This document shows positions 461 to 63,939 of a stretch of 64,000 nucleotides of DNA, piece by piece. Position 1 is the first letter of the stretch. The number at the start of each line of letters is the position of its first letter. The position numbers were made by a program, and so were the translations under genes. The notes under the pieces are model-generated. The model did no database searches, had not been told where the DNA came from, and saw nothing but the letters and a program-made list of their open reading frames with translations. The DNA comes from Knoellia koreensis (GTDB lineage Bacteria; Actinomycetota; Actinomycetes; Actinomycetales; Dermatophilaceae). The stretch covers positions 1,046,976 through 1,110,975 of the forward strand of contig NZ_JABEPQ010000001.1 of NCBI RefSeq assembly GCF_013041615.1. Reading direction: 5' to 3'.

Positions 461-722
461 TCGCGTCGCTGCTCGATGCTCAGCCCTTCCTCCATGCCGA
501 CAAGACTAGACGCGACCACCGACAGCCACCCGACACCAAGGATCGTCGGGTTGCTTTGCGACACAACAGATCCCACACGCACACAACCCAAACAGACGCA
601 ACCCCCGGAGCCGCCCCCTGTGGACAAACGCCGACCACGACGGCACCTGTGGACCAGGCACCCGACGCGGGCACGCGGCATACCTGGGCCTTGGTGTCAG
701 CGCGGGGCGACACAATGGCGCC
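461..722. other. Intergenic region
   Basis: I see no gene here. A copy of TGTGGACAA (reverse of the actinobacterial DnaA-box sequence) lies near 619 and a copy of the GTATGCCGCG motif, in reverse orientation, near 675. Confidence 0.5.
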
Positions 723-1055
723 ATGGCCTATGACGCGGAGCTGGCGGAGCGGGTGCGCGCGCTCGTGCGGGACGAACTCGACGTGACCGAGCGGAAGATG
801 TTCGGCGGGCTGGCGTTCCTCGTGGGCGGGAACATGTCGGTCACCGTGAGCGGGCGCGGCGGGCTCATGGTGCGTCTGAACCCGGACGACGCCCAGGCGC
901 GGCTCGATGGCGACGTCGTGGTGCCGTTCGAGATGCGCGGGCGGCCGATGAAGGGCTGGCTGCGCGTGCGTGAGCCCGGGTATGCCGCGGACGACGCCTT
1001 GCGCGACTGGGTCGAGCGCAGCCTCGAGTTCGCGCGGAGCCTGCCGCACCACTGA
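723..1055 (+). CDS. TfoX N-terminal domain protein
   Basis: A 110-residue protein that is essentially a single TfoX_N domain. MFGGLAFLVGGNMSV near residues 25-40 and the MKGWLRV strand near residue 80 are the recognisable parts of the family. In gammaproteobacteria TfoX/Sxy controls competence, but the short actinobacterial proteins with only this domain have no established role, so regulation of DNA uptake here is speculation. No Shine-Dalgarno is visible; CACAAT six bases before the ATG may be the -10 of a leaderless transcript. The gene stands alone, with intergenic DNA on both sides. Confidence 0.8.
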   Translation: MAYDAELAERVRALVRDELDVTERKMFGGLAFLVGGNMSVTVSGRGGLMVRLNPDDAQARLDGDVVVPFEMRGRPMKGWLRVREPGYAADDALRDWVERSLEFARSLPHH

Positions 1056-1176
1056 GGCGCTTCAGAAGGGATCGACCTTCCTGCTTCAGCGCCACCGACC
1101 CGCCCGCACATCGTCCAAGGAGGCGCTGCGGGATGCCAGGGGCGCAGCAGAGCGCGCTCCTGACATCCCGCAAAGG

Positions 1177-2076
1177 TCAGTGGGTGACGAGTCTTGCCTT
1201 GGCCGTCTTGACCTGGAGCGGTTCAGGGGTGCCCTGGATGACAACGACGTCGGGGATGTCGATCCACTGGCCGCCGTTGACCCGGAACTGGCCGCCGTAG
1301 GTGACGTCGGCGCGGACCTGGAAGGTGCCGGCCTTCGGGTACTCCTTGGTGACGTCGCCCTCGGGGTAGGGGCCGCCGAGCGACTCGGTCGGGCCGCTGG
1401 AGCTGCCGTCGCCGTAGATGTAGTTGACCGACTTGAGGACTGGGCGGATCTCGACGTTGAAACCGGCCACAGTCGCGGGGTCGGGCTTGTCGACCTCGTC
1501 CGGTTCGAAGCCAGCTTCGGGCCAGACCACCTGGAAATAGGTGGGCAGGGTCACCAGCGTGACGTTGCCCTTGGGCTGGATCTGCACGGTCGGCACCGCG
1601 AACTTCGTGTCATGGAATGCCGCCAGGATCAGTTCCATGGTTAGGGTTGGGCTTGCCCCTGGGGCGAACTGAGGGAAGCACGTGATCCCGTACTGCTCCC
1701 AGCCGCCTTGCGGCTTGCCAGCCGCATCAACCTCGCGCCGATAGAGCTTGACGCTGGGACCTAGCCCCTGCTCCGGGGTGTTGTTGGCGCAGAAGGCGGC
1801 TGCGCTCGGGCAGAAGGCATCGGCGTTGGTAGACCCAGGCTCCTCATTGGGGCAATTGGCCACCGCCGTGTACTCGTACTGAATCGGCGCCTTCTTAGCC
1901 TTGGCCACCATTGCTGATGCCTTGAGGTCCTTCAGTTCTTGCGCGGTGAACACCTTGATGCGGACACCGTCGCCCGTCCCGTCACCGCCAATGTCCGCCG
2001 CTGCCCCCGACGCAATCCCCACGAGTGCTACGACGAAAGCGCATCCAACCGCTACTGCATGCCGTAGAGACGCCAT
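1177..2076 (-). CDS. Secreted protein with PKD-like segment, partner of DUF6318 lipoprotein (copy 1)
   Basis: About 299 residues with an N-terminal signal peptide (hydrophobic stretch near residues 8-27, cut after an Ala-rich site). The middle has cysteines near FCPSAAAFCANN and GITCFPQF. The C-terminal part has IQPKGNVTLVTLPTYF, a YGDGSSSGPT stretch reminiscent of PKD domains, and ends in KARLVTH. I choose the ATG at 2076 with GGGGG about nine bases upstream; this overlaps the end of the lipoprotein gene by about 25 bases, so the two are translationally linked. A clear paralogue with the same neighbour lies at 47200-48129. The function is unknown; export and probable cell-surface location are inferred. 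Confidence 0.75.
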   Translation of the reverse strand: MASLRHAVAVGCAFVVALVGIASGAAADIGGDGTGDGVRIKVFTAQELKDLKASAMVAKAKKAPIQYEYTAVANCPNEEPGSTNADAFCPSAAAFCANNTPEQGLGPSVKLYRREVDAAGKPQGGWEQYGITCFPQFAPGASPTLTMELILAAFHDTKFAVPTVQIQPKGNVTLVTLPTYFQVVWPEAGFEPDEVDKPDPATVAGFNVEIRPVLKSVNYIYGDGSSSGPTESLGGPYPEGDVTKEYPKAGTFQVRADVTYGGQFRVNGGQWIDIPDVVVIQGTPEPLQVKTAKARLVTH

Positions 2077-2645
2077 GATGCCCCCATCCACTGCACCCCA
2101 ACGGTGCGAGCGAGCTTCTTCGCAGGATCGGTGAGCACTACCTTGCCTGCCTTGTCGACGACGTTGACCTTGTGTTGGTCCATGTACAGCCGGACCAGTT
2201 GAACGCCATCGGCGTTCTGGCTGAGGGGCGTCACCCTCGTCACCGTCACAGGGTTGGAGTCGTACTTCTGTCCGTCGCGTTCGAGCTCCGCGCTCGTTTT
2301 GTTGAAGTTCTTACATGCGATGCACTCAGGATCACTCAACAGAGGAAGCAGTTTTGAGTTGGGCTGAGTCCACGCCTCGTTCACTTGCTCCATGTAGTAC
2401 TCGACGAAGGCTGCGGCCCCCTCGGGGGTGTGCTTCTGCGCCTCGGGCGGAAGCTTGGCCGGGTCCAGCGTCGCCGTGCCCGACGTGGTCGTGGTGCTCG
2501 ACGGAGTGCTCGTGGACGTCGTGCTGGTGCTCGACGACGAGCTCGTCGATGTGGTCGGCGGGTCATCGCCGCCCCCGTTGCAGGCACCCAGGCCGAGCGC
2601 GAGCACCCCAGCCGCCACCGCGGCATACCAACGCCGTGCGAACAC
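2052..2645 (-). CDS. DUF6318 family lipoprotein (copy 1)
   Basis: A 197-residue lipoprotein. The signal peptide ends in LGLGAC, a lipobox with the modified cysteine at about residue 22. A Ser/Thr-rich linker (residues 30-60) follows, then a folded domain starting near PPEAQKHTPEGAAAFVEYYM and containing a CIAC pair, as in the DUF6318 family of Actinobacteria (family name from recall, not search). The GTG start at 2645 is preceded by GAGAGGGGAG. The gene overlaps the secreted protein gene downstream, and the same two-gene order recurs at 48129-48731. The domain resembles NTF2-like lipoproteins in general form; no substrate is known. Confidence 0.75.
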   Translation of the reverse strand: MFARRWYAAVAAGVLALGLGACNGGGDDPPTTSTSSSSSTSTTSTSTPSSTTTTSGTATLDPAKLPPEAQKHTPEGAAAFVEYYMEQVNEAWTQPNSKLLPLLSDPECIACKNFNKTSAELERDGQKYDSNPVTVTRVTPLSQNADGVQLVRLYMDQHKVNVVDKAGKVVLTDPAKKLARTVGVQWMGASWRLYGMQ

Positions 2646-2806: not shown

Positions 2807-4986
2807 TCAGCGGGCCGGTTCGAGCGCGGCGCTCCCCTCTGCCTCGTCCGCATCCCCAACGACGCCGTCACCCTCCTCACCCGCCAACGGCCGCGCGTCG
2901 AGCTCGGCGTCGCGGCGGGCGAGGGCGCTGGGCCACCACATGCGGCCACGGACGTCGAGGTTGAGCGCAGTCACGAGCACCGACCGCACCACCAGGGTGT
3001 CGAGCAGCACGCCGAGCGCGACTGCCAGTCCGATCTCGGCGAACGTCACGACCGGCAGCGTCCCCAGCACCGCGAACGTGCCAGCCAGGACCAGCCCAGC
3101 CGACGTGATCACGCCACCCGTCGCCGACAGATCCACCAGCGCGCCACGCCGGGTGCCGATCTCCTTGGCCTCCTCGTGGACACGCGTCATGAGGAAGATG
3201 TTGTAGTCGATGCCGAGGGCGACGAGGAAGACGAAGACGAACAACGGCAGCGACGAGTCCGCCCCGGCGAACCCGAGCACGTGCCGGAAGATCAATGCCG
3301 ACAACCCCATTGCCGCGCCGTACGACAACAGCACGGTCCCGATGAGGATCAGCGGCGCGGTGATCGCGCGCAGCAGCAACACCAGGATGAGCAGCACCAC
3401 GGCGAGGATCAGCGGGATGATGCGCACGTTGTCGTCGGCCGAGGCCCGCAACGTGTCCGCGCGCGTCGCGGTGTCGCCACCGGCGATGGCGTCGGCGCCG
3501 GGAACGTCGGCGATGGTGGACCGAATGCGGTCAACCGTGGCGGTCGCGGCATCGGAGTCCGGCGCGTCCGCGAGGGTGGCCTGGATGATCGACCGCCCGC
3601 CCTTCGTCACCGGATCACCAACTGCCGCAACGCCTTTCACACCGGCCACGGCCGTCTTCACCGCACCAGCCGCATCGGCGTTGGCCAACACCAGCACCGG
3701 CGAGCCCGACCCTGCCGGGAAGTGCTTCGCCACGATCTGCTCCCCCACAACCGACTCGGGCTCACCGTAGTAGGAGTCGGCGTTGGACAGCCCGGTGGCG
3801 TTGAGCTGCAGGACGCCGAGCGTGGCCACCGCCAGCAGCACGGACGTCACGATCCACGTGCGCCGCGGGGCGCGGGCGATGCGGCGCCCGATCCGCGCCC
3901 AGAACCCGTCGCGCGTGTGGTCGACCGACCCGAACGTCGGCCGCGCCGGCCAGAAGATCCACCGACCACACACGACCAACAGCGCGGGCAGCAGCGTCAG
4001 CATCACCAGCAGCCCCACCGCGATGCCGATCGCCGCAACCGGCCCGAGCCCCTTGGTGGAGTTCATGGTCGCGACGAGCAGGCAGAGCATCCCGGCGATC
4101 ACCGTCGCGCCGGACGCGAGGATCGCCGGCCCGGCGCGGTGCAGCGCGAACGCCATGGCCTCGTGCCGGTCCTCGTGCCGCCGCAGCTCCTCTCGGTAGC
4201 GCGCGACCAGCAGGAGGGCATAGTCGGTCCCCGCGCCGAACACGATCACGGTGAGGATGCCCGAGCTCTGCGCGTTGACGGTGAGGGTGTCGTCCTTGGC
4301 GAGGAAGTAGATGACGGCCTGCGCGACGAAAAGCGCTGTGCCAGCAGAGATCACGGGGATGAGCCACAGCACCGGACTGCGGTACGTCAGGAGAAGGATG
4401 ACGATGACGACGGCCATCGCGGAGTAGAGCAGCTTGCCGTCGATGCCGGAGAACGCCTCGGAGGAGTCCGCGGCATACCCGACGGGTCCGGTGACGTGCA
4501 TCGAGAGTCCGGCAGGGCGCACGTCCGCGATCCCGCGGACGTCACCGACGATGTCACCGAGGGCGTCCCACCCACCCTCGCCCGGGTCGACGGGGGGACG
4601 ATGACCTGCAACGCCTTGCCGTCCTGCGATGGGATCGGCCCGACGGTCTTGCTCTTGACCGGCGCGAGGGCGTCGAACTTCACGACCTGCGCGGCGACGG
4701 CCTCCAGGTCCTGCGGCGTGACGCCGGCCGGGCGTTCGTAGACGATGACGGCGGGGAACTCGTTCTTGCTCTGGAACGCCTCGATCTGCCGGACCACCTG
4801 GGTCGACTGGGCATCCGTGGGCAGCCACGCGACCGCCTCGTTGTTGAGCACCCCCTGCAGCTTGCCCGCCGGGTTGAACGCGGCCGCCAGCACGACGAGC
4901 CAGAACCCCACGACGAACCACTTCGTCACCTTGCCGCTCGGGAACCAGGCGAACCGCCCCACGTCACCCATGCGCGTCTGAGCCAT
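2807..4986 (-). pseudogene. MMPL family (RND) transporter, frameshifted
   Basis: This encodes a MmpL/YdfJ-like membrane transporter of about 726 residues, interrupted by a frameshift. The first part (start ATG 4986) reads FAWFPSGKVTKWFVVGFWLV and continues normally to SQDGKALQVIVP. The homologous reading then resumes in another frame with GEGGWDALGDIVGDV and continues through two blocks of transmembrane helices to the end. The shift falls at a run of six G on the plus strand (4592-4597), so gain or loss of a base in the homopolymer explains it. It may be a real mutation or a sequencing error; both halves look otherwise intact, with no further stops. MMPL proteins export lipids, siderophores or drugs using the proton gradient. 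Confidence 0.8.
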
Positions 4987-5198
4987 CTCGCCAAGCCTCC
5001 CGATCGTCGCGTCGCACCCCCTGCCTGGCGCCGTCCGAGATCGACGCTAGGGCCCGGATGACGGGGCGGGCAATGGGATATCGCCAAGTTGGGTCAGCGT
5101 TCAGGGGCGGTTCAGGGGTGACCCTGAGTGCGTGGTGGCGTGACAGCCGTCGGTATGCCGCGTGGCTGGCCTTCGCCGTGGAGTCGTGGGCGATCGCA
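4987..5198. other. Intergenic region upstream of the MMPL gene
   Basis: I see no convincing gene. One GTATGCCGCG copy lies near 5155. Confidence 0.45.
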
Positions 5199-6359: not shown

Positions 6360-7379
6360 GTGCCCGACCACACACAGTGTCGGTGCGGGGAAACGATGGT
6401 GGCCGGCGAGCGCGCCGGCTTCGACTCCCGCTCCGGACGGTCGATCTGCTTGTGGTGCCTGGCCGACCTGAAGGCCGGACGCACTCCCCCTCGCCGGCGC
6501 GCGACTCAGGGACCCTCAATGCACACGCTGACGGCACCGCGAACGCCAGTGCCGATGGGTTCGCCGCCCGCTCGCCTAGCGGGCCACGCCACCCGGCGTC
6601 GCGCACGACGGCCACGGTCAGGACCACGGACCAGCGTGACGCTCCTGATCGTGGCAGCGGTCCTGGCGGCCACGGCATACATCGACAACGCCGTCCTGGG
6701 CCACGACGCCATCCCCCGTGCGCTCGGGCTCCGTCACCTGCCCGGCGTGAACACCGGCGGTGGCATTGCGGGAGTGGGGAGCAAGACCTCGGACTATGCG
6801 TTCCTCGCGACCAAGGCCAACGGCGACCCAGTGGCGTTCAGCAGGTGCGACACCATTCACATCGTCGTGAACAGCACGCACGCCGTCCCGGACGCCGACC
6901 GGATGCTGCGCGAGGCGTTGGACCGAGTGAGCGAAGCGAGCGGCCTGAAGTTCGTGGTGGACGGCGCCAGCGATGAACTGCCGAGCTCCGTTCGAGCCTC
7001 CACCAGCTCCCCCGTCGCAAGCTGGAGGAACCGGCCGGCGCTGGTGGCGTGGCTGTCGCCGCGAGAGGACAACCGGCTCGGTCCGAAGGCGATCGGACTC
7101 GGCGGCCCCATCGAAACTGGTTCCTACGTCGACGCCAACCGCCACTACGGGACGGGCACGGTGTCGCTCGACGGGCCAGCACTGCAGCGGATGATGCATG
7201 AGCCGAACGGCTGGGCCAGAGCGCGGGCCGTGGTGATGCACGAGCTCAGCCACATGATCGGACTCGCCCACTTCGACTCATCTGCGGAAGTCATGGCCCC
7301 TGAGAGCTCACACGTCACGGAGTTTGGCGCTGGCGACCGCGAGGGACTTCGACTCCTGGGCGGAGGCCCCTGCTACTGA
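6360..7379 (+). CDS. Zinc-ribbon, transmembrane and matrixin-like metallopeptidase fusion
   Basis: A 339-residue protein in three parts. Residues 1-40 contain CRCG and, about 20 residues later, CLWC, which together look like a small zinc ribbon. A basic Pro-rich linker leads to one transmembrane helix near residues 93-113 (VTLLIVAAVLAATAYI). The remaining part, outside the membrane by the positive-inside rule, ends in a metzincin site HELSHMIGLAHFD at about residues 294-306, with three zinc-ligand histidines and catalytic Glu, followed by a likely Met-turn in EVMAPE. The fold is matrixin-like; the substrate is unknown. A cytoplasmic zinc ribbon on a matrixin is unusual and may sense or tether. 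The start ATG at 6360 is chosen because it keeps the ribbon. Confidence 0.72.
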   Translation: MPDHTQCRCGETMVAGERAGFDSRSGRSICLWCLADLKAGRTPPRRRATQGPSMHTLTAPRTPVPMGSPPARLAGHATRRRARRPRSGPRTSVTLLIVAAVLAATAYIDNAVLGHDAIPRALGLRHLPGVNTGGGIAGVGSKTSDYAFLATKANGDPVAFSRCDTIHIVVNSTHAVPDADRMLREALDRVSEASGLKFVVDGASDELPSSVRASTSSPVASWRNRPALVAWLSPREDNRLGPKAIGLGGPIETGSYVDANRHYGTGTVSLDGPALQRMMHEPNGWARARAVVMHELSHMIGLAHFDSSAEVMAPESSHVTEFGAGDREGLRLLGGGPCY

Positions 7380-7380
7380 C

Positions 7381-8484
7381 CTACGCCGTCACGCGATTCT
7401 TCATCAGGAGCTCATCGACCTCGACCGCAGCGACCAAGCGAGCGATGTCTGGCTCAGCTACCAATTCGATGGGCATCAGCGTTTTGGCCGCTCCCTTCAG
7501 TCGGAACACGACCTCGTCGGCGGCGTCCATGAGCACGCTTGTCGCGTCAGCCTCCTTCCACCTCACACCGGACAACGCCTGACGGGTCAGGTGACAGGCG
7601 AGGACTGGCTCGACGACCGGCTTTCCGTACGCGTCCGCGCGAGGGATCCGGATCGCGACGGCTCGCAGCCCCAGCAGGCGGGGCGCGACGGCAAGCGCCT
7701 CCTTGACGGTGACGAGGACATACCCCGCAACCATGGTGCGGTAGAGCTCTGACTGCTCCGTCTTGGACATTCGCCGCAAAGAGAGGTTTCCGGCCTGGGT
7801 GGTCGTGGGGTACCGATCCGGAAGAACGTCGACGTCGGGCACGAGCACCACGACACTGGCTGTTCCCTTCTCCACCGCCACTACCGCAGCGGCCGCATCG
7901 TTGTCCTCGTATGCCGCGGCGAGGTCTTCGCGTACGACCTCAGGGTCGTTGTCGGTAAGGCGCGCCCACCTCCTGTCGAGGTCGGCTTGGCGATTGGCCT
8001 GAAGCTGCGCGAGTCTCGCCTGGTTGTCGGCCAGCTCTCGCTGGGTGGCGGCTTCGGCTGCTGTCTTGGCCTGACGGCGAGCCTTGAAGTTCCAGAAGGC
8101 GACACCTGCGAGGGCACCCTTCATGTGTCGCCTGCGTATCGCGCCGGTGTCCACCGGTGACTCGGGCTGCGCAAGAGGTCGCGTCGCTGGCGCGAACTCG
8201 ACCCGGTGCAGGTCCAGAACCTGACGAATGGCTGCCGACAGTTCCTGCGCCTGAGCCGCTTTGGCCTGCGCGAGTGTCTGTCCGGCTGTGCGCGCGCCGA
8301 TCAGTCTGCCACGACCGCCACCCGCGAGGGATTGGTAGAAGCCAACCGGGCCGACGCCGGTTGAGATGCCCGGCGACCCGGCACCGATGTGGACGCGAGC
8401 CACCCGCGGGCCAACGCTGGTCCGGATTCCACGAGATGAAGCCCGGACCCGCACGCCCGGAGCTACTCGAATAGAGAAGCCCAC
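7381..8484 (-). CDS. DUF4236 domain protein
   Basis: I choose the GTG at 8484, preceded by AAAGGGAG eight bases upstream; the longer open frame has an implausible Cys/Arg-rich N-terminus. The protein then has about 367 residues and begins with a DUF4236 domain (GFSIRVAPGVRVRASSRG, then VGPRVARVHIGAGSPGIS), a beta-rich repeat domain of unknown function. A helical region rich in Ala, Gln and Arg follows near residues 130-180, probably a coiled coil, then a mixed alpha/beta C-terminal domain of about 180 residues that I do not recognise. It lies tail-to-tail with the metallopeptidase gene, one base apart. Confidence 0.75.
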   Translation of the reverse strand: MGFSIRVAPGVRVRASSRGIRTSVGPRVARVHIGAGSPGISTGVGPVGFYQSLAGGGRGRLIGARTAGQTLAQAKAAQAQELSAAIRQVLDLHRVEFAPATRPLAQPESPVDTGAIRRRHMKGALAGVAFWNFKARRQAKTAAEAATQRELADNQARLAQLQANRQADLDRRWARLTDNDPEVVREDLAAAYEDNDAAAAVVAVEKGTASVVVLVPDVDVLPDRYPTTTQAGNLSLRRMSKTEQSELYRTMVAGYVLVTVKEALAVAPRLLGLRAVAIRIPRADAYGKPVVEPVLACHLTRQALSGVRWKEADATSVLMDAADEVVFRLKGAAKTLMPIELVAEPDIARLVAAVEVDELLMKNRVTA

Positions 8485-9719: not shown

Positions 9720-9860
9720 GACGGCGAGTATGCCGCGTCGTCCAGACATGCACTCCCCCGCCCGTTAGAGTCGCTCACGTAATTGCGGCCCGACGGGCTT
9801 CCGCGTCAGGACAAGCCCCCACCCGCACGGATCACTTCGTGCTGCCTGGGGTTCTGACTC

Positions 9861-19530: not shown

Positions 19531-19651
19531 CTCGGTGGGCCTCCCTGGTCCCCTGGTGGTGCTGGTTGGCGTGACTAGCAATGGTTTCAGTGGGGTCTGA
19601 CACTCACGTGCCAGTGGTTCCCGGCGATGGTTCGGGCGGTATGCCGCGGGC

Positions 19652-41672: not shown

Positions 41673-41756
41673 GGCTCAACACTAGTCAGCGTTCGCCATC
41701 GCGCTAGCCGACCGGGGGTATGCCGCGTGGCGCGGCCGGGACGCCCGTGCGCCGGA

Positions 41757-48731: not shown

Positions 48732-48877
48732 CAGCTGCCCCTCCTCGAGGACCGACCCTGCGGCGGTCCCGCGTTGCCACCGAATATTACGGATTGCCTG
48801 CATTTGGTCCACCCGTCATCCACAGGGCGCCCGAGGCACCCACTCACCCACCCGGCATACCGATCCATCACCCTCCG

Positions 48878-53399: not shown

Positions 53400-53474
53400 A
53401 CCGGCACGCTAGGAAGCGAGCCCGTCACCCGACAGCGCCGTCACGCCCGCCTGTGGAAACGCGGGCGGCGAACG

Positions 53475-54113: not shown

Positions 54114-54982
54114 GACGCCGGCGACTCCGACGGCATCACGCGCGGCGACACCGCGACGGCCAGGGTGCCCGGCCCGACGTGTGCGCCGACAACGGCTCCC
54201 AGCTCCACGAGCGTCACTTCACCGGCGTCAGGGACCCGTTCGCGCAGCCGGGCCACGAGGTCCTCGGCCCGGCTCGCGGAGTCGAGGTGGTGGACGGCGA
54301 TGTCGGCCCCACCAGTGGCCCTGCCGGCCGCGTCGACGGCCAGCTCCTCCAGGCGCGCGATCGCCCGCGAGGACGTGCGCACCTTCTCCAGCGGACGGAT
54401 GTGGCCGTCGTCGAGCCCAAGAATCGGCTTGATCGCAAGAGCCGAACCGAGGAAGGCCGACGCCGACCCGATGCGTCCGCCGCGGCGCAGGTGCTCGAGG
54501 GTGTCGACGTAGAACACGACCGTCGAGTCCTCCGCTCGCCGGCGTGCCACCTCGGCCACCTCCTCGAGTGCCGCACCACCGGCTGCGGCCTGGGCTGCCG
54601 ACACGACGGCATACCCCATCGCCATGCCGAGCGACCGCGAGTCGACGACCTTCACGGGCACGGGTGACTGCTGCGCGGCCAGGTGGGCCGACTCGACGGT
54701 CGATGACATGTCGGCCGAGATGTGCACGGAGACAATGGAATCCGCTCCCTCGGCTGCCGCCTTCTCGTAGGCGTCGAGGAAGGCCTGCGGTGAGGGACGC
54801 GAGGTCGAGACCGGCTTGAACTTGCGCAGCGCCTCCGCCACTTCACCGGTGGTCACGTCGACGCCCTCGCTGAACTCCGTGCCCCCGATGATGACGTGCA
54901 GCGGCACGACCTGGATGCCGTGCGCGTCCACCACGGAGGCAGGCAGGTATGCCGTGGAGTCCGTGACAAGGGCGACGCTCAC
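54110..54982 (-). CDS. DegV family fatty-acid-binding protein
   Basis: About 290 residues, DegV fold. SVALVTDSTAYLPASVV at the N-terminus and TSRPSPQAFLDAYEKAAAEG near residue 70, with SADMSSTVESAHLAA and GGRIGSASAFLG, are family marks. DegV/FakB proteins carry fatty acids for phosphorylation by a FakA kinase; the plsY neighbour fits a role in phospholipid synthesis. I choose GTG 54982 because TAGCGT lies seven bases before it (leaderless) and because most DegV proteins begin with this sequence; the GTG at 54991 is also open. Confidence 0.88.
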   Translation of the reverse strand: MSVALVTDSTAYLPASVVDAHGIQVVPLHVIIGGTEFSEGVDVTTGEVAEALRKFKPVSTSRPSPQAFLDAYEKAAAEGADSIVSVHISADMSSTVESAHLAAQQSPVPVKVVDSRSLGMAMGYAVVSAAQAAAGGAALEEVAEVARRRAEDSTVVFYVDTLEHLRRGGRIGSASAFLGSALAIKPILGLDDGHIRPLEKVRTSSRAIARLEELAVDAAGRATGGADIAVHHLDSASRAEDLVARLRERVPDAGEVTLVELGAVVGAHVGPGTLAVAVSPRVMPSESPAS

Positions 54983-55031: not shown

Positions 55032-57938
55032 TCAGGCGGGGACCACGTTGACCAGCTTGGGAGCCCGCACGATGACGGTGCGGATGCCGTTCTCGGTGGC
55101 GGCGACGACCTTGGGCAGCGCCAGCACCTGCTCGCGCAGCGCGTCCTCGGTGATGTCGGCCGGCACCTCGATGCGGTCGCGCACCTTGCCCTTGATCTGC
55201 ACGACGCAGGTGACCGTGTCCTCGACGAGCAGCTCGGGGTCGGCCACGGGGAACGGCACGTAGGTGATGGTCTCGTCGTGACCCAGCCGGCGCCACAGCT
55301 CCTCGGCGATGTGCGGCGCGACCGGCGACACCATCTGCACGATGGTCTCGGCGGCCTCGCGCGGCACCGCGTCGAGCTTGGTCAGGGCGTTGTTGAGCTC
55401 GATGAGGCGCGCGATCGCCGTGTTGAAGCCGAGGCTCGCGTAGTCGCGGGTGACCGCGTCGATGGTCCGGTGCATGATGCGCTTGGTCTCGTCGTCGAGC
55501 GGCTCGTCGACGACCCGCAGCTCGCCAGTCTCCTCGTCGATCACGTTGCGCCACAGGCGTTGCAGGAACCGCTGGGCTCCGACGACCGCCCGCGTCTCCC
55601 ACGGCTTGGACAGCTCGAGCGGCCCCATCGACATCTCGTAGACCCGCAGCGTGTCGGCGCCGTACGCCTCGTACATCTCGTCCGGGCTGACGACGTTCTT
55701 GAGCGACTTGCCGATCTTGCCGAACTCGCGCGTGACGGGCTGGTCGTTCCACGTGAACGACGGGTTCTGCGGGTCGCCACCGTCGGCCTCGGACACCTCG
55801 ACCACCTCGGCCGCCGGCACGGGCTGGCCGCGGTCGTCGCGGTAGGCATAGGCCTGGATGTAGCCCTGCGAGAAGTACTTGCGGAACGGCTCCTCGCTCG
55901 TCAGGTGGCCCAGGTCGAACAGCACCTTGTGCCAGAACCGCGCGTAGAGCAGGTGCAGCACGGCATGCTCGACACCACCGATGTAGAGGTCGACGCCACC
56001 GGGGTCGGTGACATCGGCCGGTGCGCCCTCCACGGGCGTCGCGTGCTTGCCCATCCAGTAGGCCTCGTTACCGGGCGCGACGAACGCCTCGTCGTTCTCC
56101 GGATCGAGGTATCGCAAGTAGTACCAACAGGATCCGGCCCAGTTGGGCATGGTGTTGGTCTCACGCCGGAACTTGCGCAGGCCCCTCCCGTCGCCCAGGT
56201 CCAGTTCGACCTCGACCCAGTCGGTCGCGCGCGACAACGGCGCCTCGGGGCTCGACGACGAGTCGTCCGGGTCGAACGTCTTGGGCGAGTAATCGGGCAC
56301 ATCGGGCAGCTCGACCGGCAGCATCGCCTCGGGCACCTTGTGGGCGACACCGTCCTCGTCGAAGACGATCGGGAACGGCTCGCCCCAGTAGCGCTGCCGG
56401 CTGAACAGCCAGTCGCGCAGCTTGTAGTTGACCGTCGCCTCGCCGTGCCCCTTGGCGACCAGCCAGTCGATGATCGCGGCCTTGGCCTCGTTCACCCCCA
56501 TGCCGTCGAGCGAGACCTCGTCGTTGGCGGAGTTGATGGCCGGCCCGTCACCGGTGAACGCCGTGGTCTCGTCGTGGCCCTCGCTCGGCTGGACGGTGCG
56601 CACGATCGGCAGCCCGAACTTCTCGGCATACTCCCAGTCGCGGGTGTCCTGCGCCGGCACCGCCATGATGGCGCCGGTGCCGTAGCCCATGAGCACGTAG
56701 TCGGCGACGAACACCGGGATCCGCTCGCCGTTGACGGGGTTGGTGGCGTAGGCACCGGTGAACACACCGGTCTTGTCCTTGCCCTCGGTCTGTCGCTCCA
56801 CGTCGCTCTTGCGCGAGGCCGCCAGCTGGTATGCCGCGACGGCCTCCTTCGGGGTCGCCGCGCCTCCCGTCCACGCAGGATTGACATCAGCGGGCCAGTC
56901 CCCTTGGGAGACAATGGATTCCAGCAGCGGGTGCTCGGGCGCGACGACCATGAAGGTGGCGCCGAACAGTGTGTCGGGCCGGGTCGTGAAGACCTCGATC
57001 GACGCGTCCTGTCCCACAACGGGGAACCGCACCCGCGCGCCCTGGCTGCGTCCGATCCAGTTGCGCTGCATGAGCTTGACCTTCTCGGGCCAGTCCACGC
57101 GGTCGAGGTCGTCGGCCAGCCGGTCGGCGTACGCGGTGATGCGCATCATCCACTGGCGCAGGTTGGTCTTGAAGACCGGGAAGTTGCCACGCTCGGACCG
57201 CCCGTCGCTGGTGACCTCCTCGTTGGACAGCACCGTCCCGAGTCCGGGCGCCCAGTTGACCGGCGCCTGCGAGGTGTAGGCCAGCCGGTACCCGTCGAGC
57301 ACCTCGGCCTGCTCGGCCGGCGACAGCGAAGCCCACGCACGGCCGTTCGGCGTCGGCCGCTCCCCCGCCTCGAACTGCGCGACCAGCTCGCTGATCGGCC
57401 GCGCCTTGCCCCGACCGCCGTCCTCGCGCACCGCGTCGACGTCGTACCACGCGTCCCAGATCTGCTCGAAGATCCACTGGGTCCACTTGTAGTACTTGGG
57501 GTCGATGGTCTCGATCGAGCGCCGGTCGTCGTGCGCCAGCCCCAGCCGCCGCAGCTGGCGCTTCATGACGACGATGTTCTCCTCGGTCGTCTTGCGCGGG
57601 TGCTGGCCGGTCTGCACGGCATACTGCTCCGCCGGCAGCCCGAACGCGTCGTAGCCCAGGCAGTGCAGGACGTTCTTGCCGGTCATCCGGTGGTAGCGCG
57701 CGAACACGTCGGTCGCGATGTAGCCCAGCGGGTGGCCGATGTGCAGCCCCGCCCCGGACGGGTAGGGGAACATGTCGAGGACCAGCAGCTTCTCGCGGTC
57801 GCCGACCTTCTCCGGCTCGGCCCACGGGCCGGCGGGGTTGGGCGCGTGGAACGTGCCCTGCTCCTCCCACCGGTCCTGCCAGGTGGTCTCGATCGTGTCG
57901 GCCAGCTCGGCGGTGTACCGGTACGGCGTCTCGCTCAT
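55032..57938 (-). CDS. leuS: Leucyl-tRNA synthetase
   Basis: A 968-residue class I synthetase that charges tRNA-Leu. HIGH is HIGHPLGY (residues 66-73). The KMSKS-type loop reads [11 protein letters not shown], a GKxGKS variant seen in actinobacterial LeuRS. The editing domain lies at about 260-440 ([20 protein letters not shown]). Its length is normal for actinobacteria, which carry an insertion. The gene is preceded by a leader with three leucine codons and a terminator-like hairpin, suggesting control by leucine-tRNA charging. Confidence 0.97.
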
Positions 57939-58094: not shown

Positions 58095-58715
58095 TTAGCG
58101 CAGCAGCCCGAGCACGATCAGCACCTGTCCGACGTGGTAGGTCACCATCACGGCGAGGGTGCCGAACCGCAGCGGCCGCACGAACCGGTTCCAGGCCAGC
58201 ACCGTGTCGCTCACCATGAAGACGGTCGCTCCCAGCGCCACCAATGGTCGTCCCGTCGCCCAGGCCGCGACGACCATGACCCCGATGACCGCCATGTATG
58301 CCGCGCACGCACCTCCCAGCCCCGGCCCACCTTCGCGTGCGGCGGCGGGAACGATGCGCCGACCGGCGGTCGCGGCGGCAACCGCGACGAGCGCGGCACC
58401 GGCGAGCGTGAGCCAGCCGGCCGGCATACCCGCACCGACGAAGGCGACCACGTAGGCGAGGTGGGCGAGCAGGAACGCGCCCAGCCCGACGACGAAGCGC
58501 GGCTCGGCCTCAGAGAGGAGCGCGATGTCGCCGACGAGGCTCAGCGCCAGCGCCGCGAGCAGGGCCCAGCCGCCGCCCATCGACCAGGCCGCGACGAGCA
58601 GGGCTGCGAGGACCAGGGGCTTGAGGACGGTCTCGGTGCGCTTGGCGCCCACGGCGGCCGCCCACCAGTCGAGAGGTGCGGCCAGGGCCACGCTGAGCCA
58701 CGCGAGCGTCGTCAC
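58095..58715 (-). CDS. YhhN family membrane protein (lysoplasmalogenase-like)
   Basis: A 206-residue protein with about eight membrane helices. SLVGDIALLSEAEPRFVVGL near residue 60 and MVSDTVLAWNRFV near 165 hold the paired acidic residues of the TMEM86/YhhN family. Eukaryotic TMEM86B hydrolyses lysoplasmalogen. Bacterial members may act on vinyl-ether or other lysolipids. It is upstream of leuS in the same direction and its 3' end contains the -35 region of the leader promoter. Confidence 0.82.
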   Translation of the reverse strand: MTTLAWLSVALAAPLDWWAAAVGAKRTETVLKPLVLAALLVAAWSMGGGWALLAALALSLVGDIALLSEAEPRFVVGLGAFLLAHLAYVVAFVGAGMPAGWLTLAGAALVAVAAATAGRRIVPAAAREGGPGLGGACAAYMAVIGVMVVAAWATGRPLVALGATVFMVSDTVLAWNRFVRPLRFGTLAVMVTYHVGQVLIVLGLLR

Positions 58716-59326: not shown

Positions 59327-60013
59327 ATGAGCTCACCGGACCCCGCGGCCACCCCCGAAAGCCTGCCCATCTCGACCCCGGAGGACCTGCGCCGCGTCGT
59401 CGACGCCGTCATGGCCGGGTTCGCCCAGGTGCCGGACAACGCGTGGGACCACGCGGCATACCGCCTCGACTGGGACTGTCGTGACACGGCGGCGCACCTC
59501 ATGGACGACTTCGCGTTCTACGCGCTCAACCTCGCGAGCCGGGTGCAGCACACCGACACCTACGCCCCGTTTCTCGAACCGCCGCCGTGGCGTCCGGGCA
59601 GCCCGCCGCAGAACTTCTGGCCCGACCCGGACCTCGGCACGGCCGGGATCGTCCGCGGCGTCGATGCGACTGGTGGGTTGCTCGTGGCCGTCACTGCCAC
59701 CGCTCCCCGAGGCCACCTCGGCTTCCACCCGCGCGGCAACGGGGACGCCTCCGGGTTCGCCGCGATGGGCATCGTCGAGGCCGCCGCCCACGCGTGGGAC
59801 GTGTTGATGGCACAGGGAATCGAGTTCCGCATCGACGACGACATCTGTGAGCGGGTGCTGGCGCGGCTCTTCCCCTGGTCGCGGGCGACTGACGACCCGT
59901 GGCAGGAGTTCCTGCGCGTCACGGGTCGCACCGAGGAGACGCGCGACCAGCCGTGGACGTGGGACTCCTCCGTCCGCGACACCTACTCCGTCGGAGCCCT
60001 CCGCCCGTCCTAG
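59327..60013 (+). CDS. Maleylpyruvate isomerase / DinB-like mycothiol-dependent fold protein
   Basis: A 228-residue protein of the four-helix DinB/MDMPI group. WDCRDTAAHLMDDFAFYALN near residue 49 carries a histidine of the metal-binding triad, and IVEAAAHAWDVLMAQG near 148 carries two more. Members use mycothiol or bind metal; the specific reaction cannot be inferred. TAGTCT seven bases before ATG 59327, without a Shine-Dalgarno, indicates a leaderless transcript. Confidence 0.75.
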   Translation: MSSPDPAATPESLPISTPEDLRRVVDAVMAGFAQVPDNAWDHAAYRLDWDCRDTAAHLMDDFAFYALNLASRVQHTDTYAPFLEPPPWRPGSPPQNFWPDPDLGTAGIVRGVDATGGLLVAVTATAPRGHLGFHPRGNGDASGFAAMGIVEAAAHAWDVLMAQGIEFRIDDDICERVLARLFPWSRATDDPWQEFLRVTGRTEETRDQPWTWDSSVRDTYSVGALRPS

Positions 60014-60246: not shown

Positions 60247-60906
60247 TCAGGCGTGGGCGTTCCACGCCCCGATCTGCCAGCCGAGACGACCACGGACGAG
60301 CTCGGCCCAGTGGCAGTTGCCCATCGTCGCGAGCGTCTTCGTCGCCGCCAACGGGTCCAGCCCGAACAGCTCGGCCAGCGCCGCCCGCGACGACACCCCG
60401 TGCGCCACGATCACCACGCACTCGTCCTCGCCGATGCTGTCGAGCACCTCGCGCAACGCCTCACCCGCGCGCACCCCGACAGCCTTCAACGTCTCACCGT
60501 CGACGCCCCGCGCGATGTCCTCCTCGTCCATCTGGGCGAGCTCCGCGGCATACCTCTCACGCACCTGGGTGGTGTTCAGGCCCTGCCACTGGCCGACGTG
60601 GATCTCGCGCCACCGCTCGTCCAGCTCGACGTCGTCCACGCCGGCCGCGGCCGCGATCTCCCGCGCCGTCACGGCCGCGCGCGCCAGGTCCGAGGCGATG
60701 ACCCGCGAGGGACGGTATGCCGCGAGCGCGACACCCGCGGCCCGCGCCTGCTCCAGCCCGCGCTCCGAAAGCGGGGTGTCCAGCTGGCCCTGCCAGACGC
60801 CACCGGCGTTGTGCTCGGTCTCACCGTGGCGGACGATCACCACCCGCGGCCCGGACGGGCGCGCGGCAGGCGCCGACTGGACGGCGACGTCGGACTCGCC
60901 GCTCAC
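60247..60906 (-). CDS. Histidine phosphatase (phosphoglycerate mutase-like)
   Basis: A 219-residue histidine phosphatase. The catalytic motif VIVRHGETEHN lies near residue 27-37, with QLDTPLSERGLEQARAAG after it and the second histidine in VIVAHGVSSRAAL. Known actinobacterial members in this position act as glucosyl-3-phosphoglycerate phosphatase (GpgP), but acid phosphatase or broad activity is equally possible. GTG 60906 overlaps the rsfS stop (GTGA), so it ends the nadD-rsfS operon. Confidence 0.86.
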   Translation of the reverse strand: MSGESDVAVQSAPAARPSGPRVVIVRHGETEHNAGGVWQGQLDTPLSERGLEQARAAGVALAAYRPSRVIASDLARAAVTAREIAAAAGVDDVELDERWREIHVGQWQGLNTTQVRERYAAELAQMDEEDIARGVDGETLKAVGVRAGEALREVLDSIGEDECVVIVAHGVSSRAALAELFGLDPLAATKTLATMGNCHWAELVRGRLGWQIGAWNAHA

Positions 60907-61284: not shown

Positions 61285-61893
61285 CTACGTTCGCGCCGTG
61301 CCCGCGGGTCGCGGGTCACCGGCATACAGGCGGTACTTGTTGATGTACTGGACGACGCCGTCGGGCACGAGGTACCAGACGGGCTCGGAACGCTCCACGC
61401 GGGCGCGGCAGTCGGTGGAGCTGATCGCCATGGCCGGCACCTCCTGGAGCGTGACGCGGTCGGCGGGCAGTCCCGACTCCGACAACTCGTACCCCGGCCG
61501 GGTCACTCCGACGAAGTGCGCGAGCTCGAACAGCTCGTCGGCGTCCTTCCACGACAGGATCTGCGCCAGCGCGTCGGCGCCGGTGATGAAGAACAGCTCC
61601 GCGTCCGGGCGCTCTTGGCGCAGGTCGCGCAGGGTGTCGATCGTGTAGGTCGGGCCCGGCCGGTCGATGTCGACCCGGCTGACCGTGAACCGCGGGTTCG
61701 AGGCGGTCGCGATGACCGTCATGAGGTAGCGGTGCTCGGCCGGGCTGACCTCCTTGTCGGACTTCTGCCACGGCTGGCCCGTGGGCACGAAGACGACCTC
61801 GTCGAGGCCGAACCGGGTCTGCACCTCCGACGCGGCCACGAGGTGGCCATGGTGGATGGGGTCGAACGTCCCACCCATCACCCCGAGGCGCAT
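61285..61893 (-). CDS. nadD: Nicotinate-nucleotide adenylyltransferase NadD
   Basis: A 202-residue nucleotidyltransferase that makes deamido-NAD from nicotinate mononucleotide and [18 protein letters not shown] (residues 7-21) carries the T/HxGH motif, and [12 protein letters not shown] near residue 165 the ISxT/SxxR motif. ATG 61893 lies two bases after the stop of the small membrane protein gene; there is no room for a distant ribosome-binding site, so translation is likely coupled. Confidence 0.95.
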
Positions 61894-62227: not shown

Positions 62228-62397
62228 CGATGTGGGAAAACGGTGGACGAAAAAAGGTTGGCGAAACCTATTGCCGCACAACGGATCTGGGCATTAGAAA
62301 TCTCACACGCACTTCAGCAGGGAAGCCGCGAAGGGGAAACCCGGACCGGCAGCCAGGCCGAAGAGCAGGTCAACCGGATAACGGTGGACCGCCTCGA

Positions 62398-62868
62398 CCG
62401 GGTCTCCCGGACGAGGTCCCAGGACCTTCGGGTGCTGGGTCCGTGGGCGACGCCACGGAGGAACTCCGGACCCGCTGACCAGATCGCAACGACCCGAACG
62501 CGCCGGCTTGCCGGAGCGCCCGGGACGCCACCGTCGCAGTGGTCATGCTCCGGCTTGCCGGACGTGAGCGGTCGACCGGAGCAGGGACTTTGCCGCTCGT
62601 CGGCCCAGAATCTGCACCAACTCGTGGGACGTGCACCGCTTCGGCGAGGCACGACCCGCACCGTGAGCGGATCGACCACCTCGGTGGCCGGACCACTTAC
62701 ATCGCGAGGGACCGCAGCCACCTCGGTGGCAGCGCGAACTCGCACCCGTGAGGGACGGCAGGTCGCTTCGGCGGCCGGCCAGAACTCACACCGCGCAGGA
62801 CCGGTCCACCTCGGTGGACAGGACCTACGCACCGAGGGCCCCTCGAACTCATACTTCGAGGGGCCCTC
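62398..62868 (+). ncRNA. Candidate structured RNA: periodic array of tetraloop hairpins ending in a terminator
   Basis: In this gene-free stretch of about 830 bases, short perfect hairpins recur with centres near 62404, 62450, 62508, 62555, 62598, 62641, 62681, 62723, 62768, 62811 and 62851, mostly 40-47 bases apart. Stems differ but stay paired: CCGG-CTTG-CCGG (twice), CGC-TTCG-GCG (twice), CCAC-CTCG-GTGG (three times), GCCG-CTCGT-CGGC, CCGTGG-GCGACG-CCACGG. UUCG and CUUG are known stable tetraloops only when read from the plus strand. The last hairpin has 13-base arms (62834-62846, 62856-62868) followed by ACCTTTG, a terminator. A weak promoter TTGCCG-18-TAGAAA lies at 62271-62300. Linkers share GAACTC and GCACCG words. 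Expression and function are not known. Confidence 0.55.
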
Positions 62869-62934
62869 ACCTTTGTGCCCCGCGTGGGCCCGGATGCGCC
62901 GGCCGCGCAAGCCCCGCGCCGTACGCTGGACCCC

Positions 62935-63939
62935 ATGCCCGCCGAGATGCCCGTCGAGCTCAGCATCGTCATCCCCGTCTACAACGAGGAGGACGTCCTG
63001 CCCCTCCTGGCCGACCGGCTGCGCCCGGTCGCCGAGGGGCTCGACGCGGCATACGAGGTCATCACCGTCGACGACGGCTCCACCGACCTGTCCCCCGTCG
63101 TCCTGCAACGACTGCGCCGTGACTGGCCGCAGCTGCGGGTCGTGCGGCTGCGCGCCAACGCCGGCCACCAGGCGGCCATCTCGGCAGGGCTGGCTACCGC
63201 GCGCGGCGACTACGTCGTCACCCTCGACGCCGACCTGCAGGACCCGCCCGAGGTGATCGCGCCGATGCTCACCGCCGCCCGCGAGCAGGGGGTGGACGTC
63301 GTCTACGGCGTCCGCGGTGACCGCTCGACGGACACGGCGTTCAAACGGCTGAGCGCGCGGGCGTTCTACCGCGTCATCCGCACCCTGTCGGGCACGCACG
63401 CCCAGGTCGACGCCGGCGACTACCGGCTCATGTCGCGCGCGACGGTCGACGCCATCAACGCCCTGCCGGAGCAGCACCGGGTGCTGCGGTTCGTCGTGCC
63501 CGCACTGGGATTCCCGTCGGCCTCCGTGACGTACCGGCGCGACGAGCGGGCCGCGGGGACGTCCAAGTACCCACTCGCCAAGATGATCCGGCTGTCGCTC
63601 GACAGCGTCACCGGGTTCTCGACGGCGCCGCTGCGGTTCGCCACGTGGCTCGGGCTGCTCGGCGGTGTGGCGGCGTTCGGGCTGCTGCTCTACGCCCTCG
63701 TCGCGATGGCGCTCGGGCACACCCTGCCTGGCTGGACCTCGACCGTGGTGGCGGTCGCCGGCGTGGGCGCGGTGCAGCTGCTGTGTGTTGGGATCCTCGG
63801 CGAGTACGTCGGGCGCATGTACACGCACCTGCAGGCGCGGCCGACCTACTTCATCGCCTACGACTCCCTGACCGGCACCGGGCCGGGTGCCGTCAGCGGC
63901 GCGGACGAGCCTGCGCGAACAGAGTCACGCCGGGCATAG
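62935..63939 (+). CDS. Family 2 glycosyltransferase, DPM1/GtrB-like
   Basis: A 334-residue membrane glycosyltransferase. The GT-A domain has ELSIVIPVYNEEDVLPLLAD, the nucleotide-binding EVITVDDGSTDLS and the metal-binding DADLQDPPE near residue 98. Two C-terminal helices (FATWLGLLGGVAAFGLLLYA and VAVAGVGAVQLLCVGILGEY) anchor it. Such enzymes transfer a sugar from a nucleotide donor to a polyprenyl phosphate. ATG 62935 is preceded by TACGCT seven bases upstream, a leaderless start whose sequence is nearly the same as that of the gene at 62102. The 3' end overlaps a convergent gene by 47 bases. Confidence 0.92.
   Translation: MPAEMPVELSIVIPVYNEEDVLPLLADRLRPVAEGLDAAYEVITVDDGSTDLSPVVLQRLRRDWPQLRVVRLRANAGHQAAISAGLATARGDYVVTLDADLQDPPEVIAPMLTAAREQGVDVVYGVRGDRSTDTAFKRLSARAFYRVIRTLSGTHAQVDAGDYRLMSRATVDAINALPEQHRVLRFVVPALGFPSASVTYRRDERAAGTSKYPLAKMIRLSLDSVTGFSTAPLRFATWLGLLGGVAAFGLLLYALVAMALGHTLPGWTSTVVAVAGVGAVQLLCVGILGEYVGRMYTHLQARPTYFIAYDSLTGTGPGAVSGADEPARTESRRA

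What the first reader, a model, noticed from the sequence alone, without database searches (positions are those of the whole stretch)
675..63060. A 10-mer, GTATGCCGCG, is repeated about every 1.7 kb in both orientations
I counted about 37 exact copies, and about 60 of the shorter GTATGCC core. At roughly 70% GC, the 10-mer should occur less than once in 64 kb on both strands. It is not a codon effect, since it sits in all frames (Tyr-Ala, Ala-Tyr, Gly-Ile-Pro and others) and between genes. Density, short length and balanced orientation resemble the DNA uptake sequences of Neisseria and Haemophilus, and comEA/comEC lie in the same window. Alternatives are a chromosome-architecture signal, a Chi-like site or a nucleoid-protein site. 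An uptake sequence in Actinobacteria would, to my knowledge, be new.
Basis: partly seen in the sequence, partly recalled or inferred. Interest (0 to 1): 0.85.

Follow-up and report, generated by a model that had tools for sequence, protein, structure and literature searches.

The report
DNA-uptake-like motif in soil actinobacteria
A short DNA word scattered about 1,800 times over a soil bacterium's chromosome, with other words apparently playing the same part in some of its cousins, looks like a "take up my own kind of DNA" label of the sort best known from two Gram-negative families; whether it really steers DNA uptake still has to be tested at the bench.

Summary
GTATGCCGCG occurs 37 times in the window (0.16 expected) and 1,777 times in the 4.28 Mb genome (888/889 by strand; reversed control 14). 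The core is GTATGCCG with a C/T-G tail. The host is Pedococcus-like (Dermatophilaceae). The motif is enriched in 95 of 186 family genomes; none of 362 sampled genomes from other families of the order exceeds 22 copies.

It has the marks of a DNA uptake sequence. Strands are locally balanced. It overrides codon choice: 163 of 291 TAT codons lie in it. It is conserved at synonymous sites. The two largest motif-free intervals in 360 kb carry integrases. Inverted pairs form hairpins. Several motif-poor genomes carry other, near-balanced words: CGGATGCCG, CGTACGGCG, CCCCTTCGCC.

Genes for ComEA, ComEC and Tad-like pili are present; type IVa PilT is nearly absent from the family. But ComEA and ComEC also occur in motif-poor genomes, so they do not discriminate; 19 of 52 chosen genomes show none of the four words; no receptor was found. 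Uptake was not tested. Best reading: an independently evolved uptake-specificity signal with dialects (about 0.72).

The parts
674..683 (-). GTATGCCGCG
980..989 (+). GTATGCCGCG
2619..2628 (-). GTATGCCGCG
4469..4478 (-). GTATGCCGCG
5153..5162 (+). GTATGCCGCG
6673..6680 (-). core GTATGCCG
7909..7918 (+). GTATGCCGCG
9728..9737 (+). GTATGCCGCG
10319..10328 (-). GTATGCCGCG
10472..10479 (+). core GTATGCCG
11987..11994 (+). core GTATGCCG
12452..12461 (-). GTATGCCGCG
16918..16927 (-). GTATGCCGCG
18072..18079 (-). core GTATGCCG
19639..19668 (.). inverted pair: GTATGCCGCG on + (19639-19648) and core on - (19661-19668); folds as a G+C-rich hairpin; second arm overlaps the 3' end of a called gene (19652-20134 -)
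21383..21392 (-). GTATGCCGCG
21839..21848 (+). GTATGCCGCG
22603..22612 (+). GTATGCCGCG
24223..24230 (-). core GTATGCCG
25019..25028 (+). GTATGCCGCG
26120..26129 (-). GTATGCCGCG
28944..28953 (+). GTATGCCGCG
29126..29133 (-). core GTATGCCG
29584..29593 (+). GTATGCCGCG
30262..30269 (+). core GTATGCCG
30523..30532 (+). GTATGCCGCG
30708..30715 (-). core GTATGCCG
31908..31917 (-). GTATGCCGCG
32538..32545 (+). core GTATGCCG
34094..34103 (+). GTATGCCGCG
34565..34574 (-). GTATGCCGCG
36660..36669 (+). GTATGCCGCG
37976..37983 (-). core GTATGCCG
38309..38318 (+). GTATGCCGCG
39371..39378 (-). core GTATGCCG
41718..41727 (+). GTATGCCGCG
42102..42109 (-). core GTATGCCG
43871..43880 (-). GTATGCCGCG
43945..43952 (-). 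core GTATGCCG
44063..44070 (+). core GTATGCCG
44314..44323 (+). GTATGCCGCG
44989..44998 (+). GTATGCCGCG
45707..45716 (-). GTATGCCGCG
46423..46432 (-). GTATGCCGCG
48853..48860 (-). core GTATGCCG
49935..49942 (-). core GTATGCCG (inside comEC)
50334..50343 (+). GTATGCCGCG (inside comEC)
53394..53401 (-). core GTATGCCG overlapping the ATG of the longest comEA frame
54607..54614 (-). core GTATGCCG
54947..54954 (+). core GTATGCCG
56624..56631 (-). core GTATGCCG
56829..56838 (+). GTATGCCGCG
57617..57624 (-). core GTATGCCG
58296..58305 (+). GTATGCCGCG
58422..58429 (-). core GTATGCCG
59452..59461 (-). GTATGCCGCG
60544..60553 (-). GTATGCCGCG
60715..60724 (+). GTATGCCGCG
61320..61327 (-). core GTATGCCG
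63045..63054 (-). GTATGCCGCG
52275..53399 (-). comEA (SLBB + helix-hairpin-helix; TIGR00426 over its cut-off, TIGR01259 below it): presumed DNA receptor of the uptake machine; start codon uncertain
49855..52242 (-). comEC (PF03772 + beta-lactamase fold; ComEC_Rec2 match just below its cut-off): presumed DNA channel; 5' end from own gene caller, the open frame runs to 53208

Best explanation
GTATGCCG(C/T)G is the local dialect of a DNA-uptake-sequence-like self-recognition signal. A surface DNA receptor (unidentified; perhaps a Tad/Flp minor pilin or ComEA) prefers DNA carrying the motif; ComEA/ComEC bring it in and recombination installs it. Preferred uptake of motif-bearing alleles then multiplies and maintains copies throughout the recombining chromosome, in both orientations, while integrated foreign elements lack them. 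Inverted pairs may have been co-opted as terminator-like hairpins. When the receptor's preference changes, the genome is re-populated by a new word, which gives the dialects of related genera. Shown here: abundance, balance, codon override, conservation, absence from two islands, hairpin-forming pairs, other words in relatives, presence of comEA/comEC and Tad-like genes. Inferred: the receptor, the uptake preference, natural competence in this organism, termination by the hairpins, and that the other words serve the same function.
For: Genome-wide 1,777 copies with equal strands, control 14. Sharp core: 433 copies of GTATGCCG in 464 kb, against 1-61 for each of its 24 single-base neighbours. 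Locally balanced: 179/163 over 360 kb, although genes there run mostly one way and an rRNA operon lies on the + strand. 163 of 291 TAT codons lie in the motif. In five congeners (mean protein identity 74-76% of the compared pairs), motif TAT codons are kept 39 of 59 times against 11 of 41 for other TAT, and motif GCA 17 of 23 against 44 of 233; counted per site, p = 0.006 and 0.004. The two largest motif-free gaps in 360 kb (10.9 kb each; 0.011 gaps that long expected) carry a tyrosine integrase and a serine recombinase; the third holds an rRNA operon. Eleven convergent pairs (GTATGCCG...CGGCATAC within 60 bp), none inside a single called gene; all 8 that I folded form hairpins; 30 of 86 intergenic sites lie within 60 bp after a stop, 16% expected. 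Relatives carry other words: CGTACGGCG 2,116 in G094 but 37 in congener G095, which has 1,209 GTATGCCGCG (9, 51); CGGATGCCG 2,294 in G178; CCCCTTCGCC 1,293 and 1,229 in G101 and G103. comEA/comEC in the window; Tad-like loci. M. luteus transformation needs tad genes and comEA/comEC (PMC4322843 and PMC8467076, passages, 48, 63).
Against: No uptake data. ComEC matches in 180 of 186 and ComEA-type matches in 179 of 186 family genomes, motif-poor ones included; conversely two fairly complete but fragmented motif-bearing genomes, G139 (143 copies) and G168 (182), gave neither. 19 of 52 chosen genomes show none of the four words by the rule. No receptor gene co-varies cleanly: the third Tad type is in 27 of 28 motif-bearing and 9 of 15 motif-poor genomes by my reading, only partial in motif-rich G002 and G110 and not seen in G103; in G178, which has its own word, none of the three own-genome small pilin-like proteins found a BLAST match in the fetched locus. 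If the pairs were terminators, gaps between convergent genes should be rich in sites, but they have fewer (5 in 8.1 kb, 0.62 per kb, against 1.30 tandem and 1.36 divergent). Most coding copies sit in two frames. CGTACGGCG is partly palindromic, lies mostly in favoured codons and is not sharp (GTACGGCG 61, neighbours up to 43), so some of its excess may be compositional; the reversed control is not codon-matched. CCCCTTCGCC shares no core with GTATGCCG.
Confidence: 0.72

Rival explanations
1. Chi-like recombination site or replication-oriented segregation signal (KOPS/FRS type) recognised by a RecBCD/AdnAB-like enzyme or FtsK.
For: Short, non-palindromic, genome-wide, taxon-specific; absence from islands would also fit Chi.
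Against: Orientation is balanced in every 40-kb bin over 360 kb (179/163) although an rRNA operon lies on the + strand and most genes there run one way. Hairpin-forming pairs and different words within one genus are not expected. That known Chi and KOPS sites are orientation-biased is recalled knowledge; origin and terminus were not mapped.
Confidence: 0.08
2. HIP1-like iterated word spread by a methyltransferase- or repair-linked mutational or conversion bias, with no role in uptake.
For: Extreme iteration in both coding and intergenic DNA and lineage-specific gain and loss would fit; HIP1 has been linked to DNA methyltransferases (PMC4390886, start of abstract in the listing). No methylation data were available here.
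Against: HIP1 is a palindrome and GTATGCCG is not. Very sharp core with a graded tail, hairpin-forming pairs, and several different words in relatives.
Confidence: 0.1
3. Binding site of a nucleoid or regulatory protein spread over the chromosome.
For: A bound protein would explain conservation at synonymous sites.
Against: Random-like spacing (CV 1.06), coding density (0.89 per kb) nearly as high as intergenic (1.10), divergent gaps (1.36 per kb) no richer than tandem ones (1.30); nearly the whole set of sites differs between congeners.
Confidence: 0.07
4. By-product of codon usage and composition in a 70% GC genome.
For: 279 of 342 coding copies lie in two frames.
Against: It uses the rare codon TAT against the genome's preference (TAT 291, TAC 2158; before GCC 180 against 127); intergenic density is as high as coding; none of 362 sampled other-family genomes of the order exceeds 22 copies.
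Confidence: 0.02

Closest known systems
DUS of Neisseriaceae (e.g. GCCGTCTGAA, receptor ComP)
   Same: Short non-palindromic word, hundreds to thousands of copies, inverted repeats with a second role as terminators, dialects by clade (PMC3630211, PMC6370729 and PMC12616744, passages).
   Different: Different sequence, phylum and cell envelope. Type IVa PilT is over cut-off in only 2 of 186 family genomes. One candidate word (CCCCTTCGCC) shares no core. Uptake not shown.
USS of Pasteurellaceae (AAGTGCGGT, ACAAGCGGT)
   Same: Same kind of genomic over-representation, with a graded flank after the core.
   Different: No strong A+T-rich flank here (highest A+T 0.43 at -10, background 0.30); the 8-base core has no GCGG on either strand, although the complement of the 10-mer does contain it; uptake not shown.
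Natural transformation of Micrococcus luteus
   Same: Actinobacterium; ComEA/ComEC plus Tad/Flp pili (PMC4322843 and PMC8467076, passages).
   Different: No uptake word is mentioned: 'uptake sequence' occurs 0 times in both texts and 'DUS' 0 times in PMC8467076.
HIP1 of cyanobacteria
   Same: Extreme genome-wide iteration of an 8-mer.
   Different: HIP1 is palindromic and tied to methyltransferases (PMC4390886, start of abstract); this word is not palindromic.

Membership tests
DNA uptake sequence (functional class) | Hundreds to thousands of copies of one short word, far above expectation | tested here: met
   1,777 copies, control 14; 95 of 186 family genomes
DNA uptake sequence (functional class) | Both orientations, no replication skew | tested here: met
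   888/889; 179/163 over 360 kb, all nine bins balanced. Origin and terminus were not mapped
DNA uptake sequence (functional class) | Inverted pairs serving as terminator-like hairpins | tested here: inconclusive
   11 convergent pairs within 60 bp among 433 sites, none inside a single called gene; 8 of 8 folded form hairpins, most without a T run. Sites are enriched just after stops but sparse between convergent genes. Termination not measured
DNA uptake sequence (functional class) | Lacking in integrated foreign DNA | tested here: met
   Two largest gaps of 360 kb carry integrases; one genome sampled
DNA uptake sequence (functional class) | Clade-specific dialects | tested here: met
   Tail variants of the core; other words CGGATGCCG, CGTACGGCG, CCCCTTCGCC (51, 57-59, 65), whose common function is inferred
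DNA uptake sequence (functional class) | Motif-bearing DNA is preferentially taken up or transforms better | not testable with these tools
   Needs a bench assay
DNA uptake sequence (functional class) | Competence machinery present | tested here: met
   comEA, comEC, a phosphoribosyltransferase that I label ComFC-like, Tad-like loci read by eye; also in motif-poor genomes. DprA not searched
Neisseriaceae DUS | The DUS word or one of its dialects (CTG core) | tested here: not met
   GTATGCCG has no CTG on either strand; CTG core as quoted in PMC12616744
Neisseriaceae DUS | ComP minor pilin of a type IVa pilus | tested here: inconclusive
   PilT over cut-off in 2 of 186 and not in own genome; ComP itself not searched
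Pasteurellaceae USS | GCGG core and A+T-rich flanks | tested here: not met
   The 8-base core lacks GCGG on either strand (the complement of the 10-mer's variable tail gives one); no strong A+T flank
Chi / KOPS | Orientation bias relative to replication | tested here: not met
   origin not mapped, direction inferred from an rRNA operon and gene strands
HIP1 | Palindromic word | tested here: not met
   GTATGCCG is not its own reverse complement

The most novel reading that the evidence does not exclude
A further, independently evolved DNA-uptake specificity, in high-GC Gram-positive bacteria and served by Tad/Flp pili and ComEA/ComEC rather than type IVa pili. It would have at least three exchangeable words, one switched wholesale between species of a single genus (GTATGCCGCG and CGTACGGCG in g33) and one unrelated in sequence (CCCCTTCGCC in g27 and g36).
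Probability: 0.5. Interest if true: 0.92.

Novelty: new variant of a known kind. Interest (0 to 1): 0.86.

Why it matters
Uptake selectivity through a dense genomic word is, to my knowledge, established only in Neisseriaceae and Pasteurellaceae (a methylation-based preference in Campylobacter is also recalled). A Gram-positive, Tad-pilus-based counterpart would show that uptake specificity evolves repeatedly, would predict natural competence in many untested environmental actinobacteria, and would give a practical handle: adding the word to DNA might make these organisms easier to transform in the laboratory. Different words in congeners would allow receptor and word co-evolution to be studied directly.

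Tried and rejected
Codon effect: rejected for GTATGCCG. Oriented signals (Chi, KOPS): no local skew. Presence or absence of ComEC and ComEA as the cause of patchiness: rejected, both nearly universal. Type IVa pilus (PilT) as the uptake machine: rejected for most of the family. Tad ATPase types as discriminator: type A in 43 of 43 (in G104 as two pieces); a third type gave only a suggestive association, sorted by eye from E-values with two partial matches counted as present. The Fisher test wrongly counted G025 as motif-poor; one search repeats it by the rule. CGATGCGG in G093: not sharp, 3 of 69 intergenic, left open. GTACGCCG excess in Nocardioides and other high-GC genomes: probably codon-driven, not pursued. 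Phycicoccus k-mers: pooled orthologous regions, so repeats are confounded. G051's copies belong to a longer dispersed repeat.

Literature: ten searches listed no paper on an uptake sequence in Actinobacteria that I could recognise from titles and abstract starts, and none holding GTATGCCGCG, GTATGCCGTG or their complements as whole words. The library lacks most subscription journals and all bioRxiv preprints. Papers were seen as passages (PMC4322843, PMC6370729, PMC12616744, PMC8467076, PMC3630211) or listings only (the rest).
Full report
OBSERVATION. The 10-mer GTATGCCGCG occurs exactly 37 times in the window (0.16 expected from shuffles). The genome in which the window lies has 888 forward and 889 reverse copies, against 6 and 8 for the pattern read backwards. 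The window is somewhat denser (0.58 per kb) than the genome (0.41 per kb), so it is a sample of a chromosome-wide feature.

HOST AND DISTRIBUTION. ComEC of the window is nearest to Pedococcus and Phycicoccus (Dermatophilaceae) ComEC, 65-67% identical over the best segment. All 11 genomes of the genus are enriched (198-1,777 copies). In the family, 95 of 186 genomes have at least 100 copies and at least four times the control, 16 more have at least 30 and four times, and 75 fall below both limits. Among 396 genomes drawn from the order, none of the 362 from other families exceeds 22 copies. Named 20-kb loci agree: Pedococcus loci (L009-L012) hold 7-16 copies of GTATGCCG, while Phycicoccus loci of 73-77% GC hold none.

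ANATOMY. I sampled 464 kb of the genome (18 adjoining stretches, two others and the window). The core GTATGCCG occurs 433 times; each of its 24 single-base neighbours occurs 1-61 times. The two bases after the core prefer C/T and G (GTATGCCGCG 189, GTATGCCGTG 84); weaker signals further out largely follow codon periodicity. Strands are balanced in every 40-kb bin of 360 kb. Spacing is close to random (CV 1.06; 53 spacings under 200 bp where 74 are expected), and counts per 5 kb are slightly under-dispersed (0.82). Coding density is 0.89 and intergenic 1.10 per kb. Genes came from a simple codon-based caller that I wrote, so gene-based numbers are approximate.

NOT CODON USAGE. The genome avoids TAT (291 TAT, 2,158 TAC), yet before GCC it uses TAT 180 times and TAC 127 times; 163 of all 291 TAT codons lie inside GTATGCCG. 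There is a small excess on the sense strand (194 against 148, p = 0.015).

MAINTENANCE. I compared window genes with orthologues in five congeners (mean protein identity 74-76% among pairs above 55%). Motif TAT codons stay TAT in 39 of 59 comparisons against 11 of 41 for other TAT; motif GCA codons stay in 17 of 23 against 44 of 233. One site can count up to five times there. Per distinct site the means are 0.63 against 0.21 (17 and 13 sites, p = 0.006) and 0.55 against 0.17 (7 and 80 sites, p = 0.004). The word is therefore kept beyond what its codons would be.

FOREIGN DNA. The two largest motif-free intervals in 360 kb, 10,896 and 10,853 bp, where 0.011 gaps that long are expected, carry a tyrosine integrase with a helix-turn-helix gene and a serine recombinase with a helix-turn-helix gene. 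The next interval (7.0 kb) contains a 16S-23S-5S rRNA operon. The fourth (6.3 kb, 64% GC) is not explained. Regions of low GC have fewer motifs (2.0 per 5 kb below 66% GC, 6 bins; 5.6 at 70-72%, 36 bins), although the word is A+T-richer than the genome.

HAIRPINS. Of 16 core pairs within 60 bp, 11 are convergent (GTATGCCG...CGGCATAC) and none of these lies inside a single called gene; of the 5 in the opposite arrangement 3 do. The window's pair (19639-19668) overlaps the 3' end of a called gene. The 8 that I folded form G+C-rich hairpins, mostly without a T run. Of 86 intergenic sites, 30 lie within 60 bp downstream of a stop, where 16% are expected (p = 1e-5). Against a general terminator role, gaps between convergent genes have fewer sites (5 in 8.1 kb) than tandem or divergent ones.

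DIALECTS. In 100-kb samples of four other motif-rich genomes the same core returns with different edges (G118 GGTATGCCGT, G089 GTATGCCGTG, G113 CGTATGCCGCG, G164 both tails). Samples of 40-120 kb from 17 motif-poor genomes and 100 kb of G063 showed other words in some. Counted genome-wide: CGTACGGCG 2,116 in G094 (control 73), 855 in G098 and 559 in G100, 641-644 in G012, G025 and G099; CGGATGCCG 2,294 in G178 (control 144) and 1,011 in G046 (control 80); CCCCTTCGCC 1,293 and 1,229 in G101 and G103, 429 and 611 in G063 and G066 (controls 15-18). All are near strand balance (least so G063, 235/194). The control is the word read backwards and is not codon-matched. G094, G095 and G096 share a genus: G095 has 1,209 GTATGCCGCG and 37 CGTACGGCG, G094 has 1 and 2,116, and G096 has 234 and 196 (control 81 for the latter). 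By one rule (at least 100 copies and four times control), 33 of 52 genomes that I chose from 43 genera carry at least one of the four words: 30 exactly one and 3 two (G040 and G098 only just, G046 clearly). The other 19 carry none; G024 and G160 miss narrowly on CGTACGGCG. Motif-poor samples of G153, G048, G032, G021 and G184 gave no comparably strong word, so such words are not a routine by-product of these genomes. G051's copies turned out to be a longer dispersed repeat.

MACHINERY. comEA and comEC lie side by side in the window. ComEC matches occur in 180 of 186 family genomes; matches to the ComEA helix-hairpin-helix model in 179, with 97 genomes over its cut-off. Of the misses, 4 of 6 and 5 of 7 are under 90% complete; the other two in both lists, G139 and G168, are fragmented but motif-bearing. 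The own genome has four TadA-like ATPases; the three places that I read have neighbours looking like Tad and Flp proteins, by my reading of the sequences and, for one of them, BLAST between genomes, without a family scan. PilT is over its cut-off in only 2 of 186 genomes (G096, G180; fragments in G182) and not in the own genome. M. luteus, another actinobacterium, needs two tad clusters (PMC4322843, passages) and comEA/comEC (PMC8467076, passages) for transformation, so a Tad/ComE uptake route is plausible. No gene was found that tracks the word: the third Tad type occurs in 27 of 28 motif-bearing and 9 of 15 motif-poor genomes of the 43 examined (p = 0.005, sorted by eye), partial in G002 and G110 and not seen in G103; the small pilin-like proteins beside it found no match in the fetched locus of G178, which has its own word.

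INTERPRETATION. The marks described for DUS and USS in the passages that I read (hundreds to thousands of copies, inverted repeats doubling as terminators, clade-specific dialects; PMC12616744 and PMC3630211) are largely present here in a family of Actinobacteria with unrelated words. Oriented signals are contradicted by the strand balance, a palindrome-based HIP1 model by the word itself, and composition by the TAT test. The missing piece is function: nothing here shows that these bacteria take up DNA, still less that they prefer the word. I put about 0.72 on an uptake-specificity signal. Filing it as Neisseriaceae DUS or Pasteurellaceae USS is excluded by sequence; it may work like them.

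PRINT. My searches listed no paper that I could recognise as reporting an actinobacterial uptake sequence or this word; the library is incomplete.

Noticed in passing
L116-L120 (G063): REP-like repeat around TGCCCGGGCA with GGGCAGTTGCGCAACT beside it: TGCCCGGGCA counted 28 times (a palindrome counted on both strands) in 100 kb.
   Followed up: no
L198-L200, L164 (G051): A longer dispersed repeat, about 25 bases (consensus near AGGCCGTATGCCGCTGGGCTCGCTC), contains the GTATGCCG core; 21 copies in 80 kb, 11 intergenic.
   Followed up: partly
L218-L220, L159 (G178): Besides GGATGCCG, words such as TTGTTCCAGA and TGCCAGTCCG recur 14-15 times in 80 kb and look like parts of a longer repeat.
   Followed up: no
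L206-L208, L160 (G093): CGATGCGG is over-represented (69 against 13.5) but not sharp; a possible further word.
   Followed up: partly
own genome sample L091-L110 and window; also L215-L217 (G106): CTCCCCCG is over-represented (77 against 22; 25 against 3.9).
   Followed up: no
L097:9549-20000 and L100:12831 to L101:2083: Two apparent integrated elements with recombinases in the own genome, free of the motif.
   Followed up: partly
L091:6959-7603 and 8751-9395: Two 214-aa frames 1.8 kb apart whose first 50 residues are nearly identical, the first without a Pfam match, in a motif-free 6.3-kb stretch of 64% GC.
   Followed up: no
L089 (G096), L090 (G180): The only two family genomes with PilT over cut-off (fragments also in G182), so type IVa pili look sporadic in the family.
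   Followed up: no
window 53394-53401: A motif copy overlaps the ATG of the longest comEA frame.
   Followed up: no
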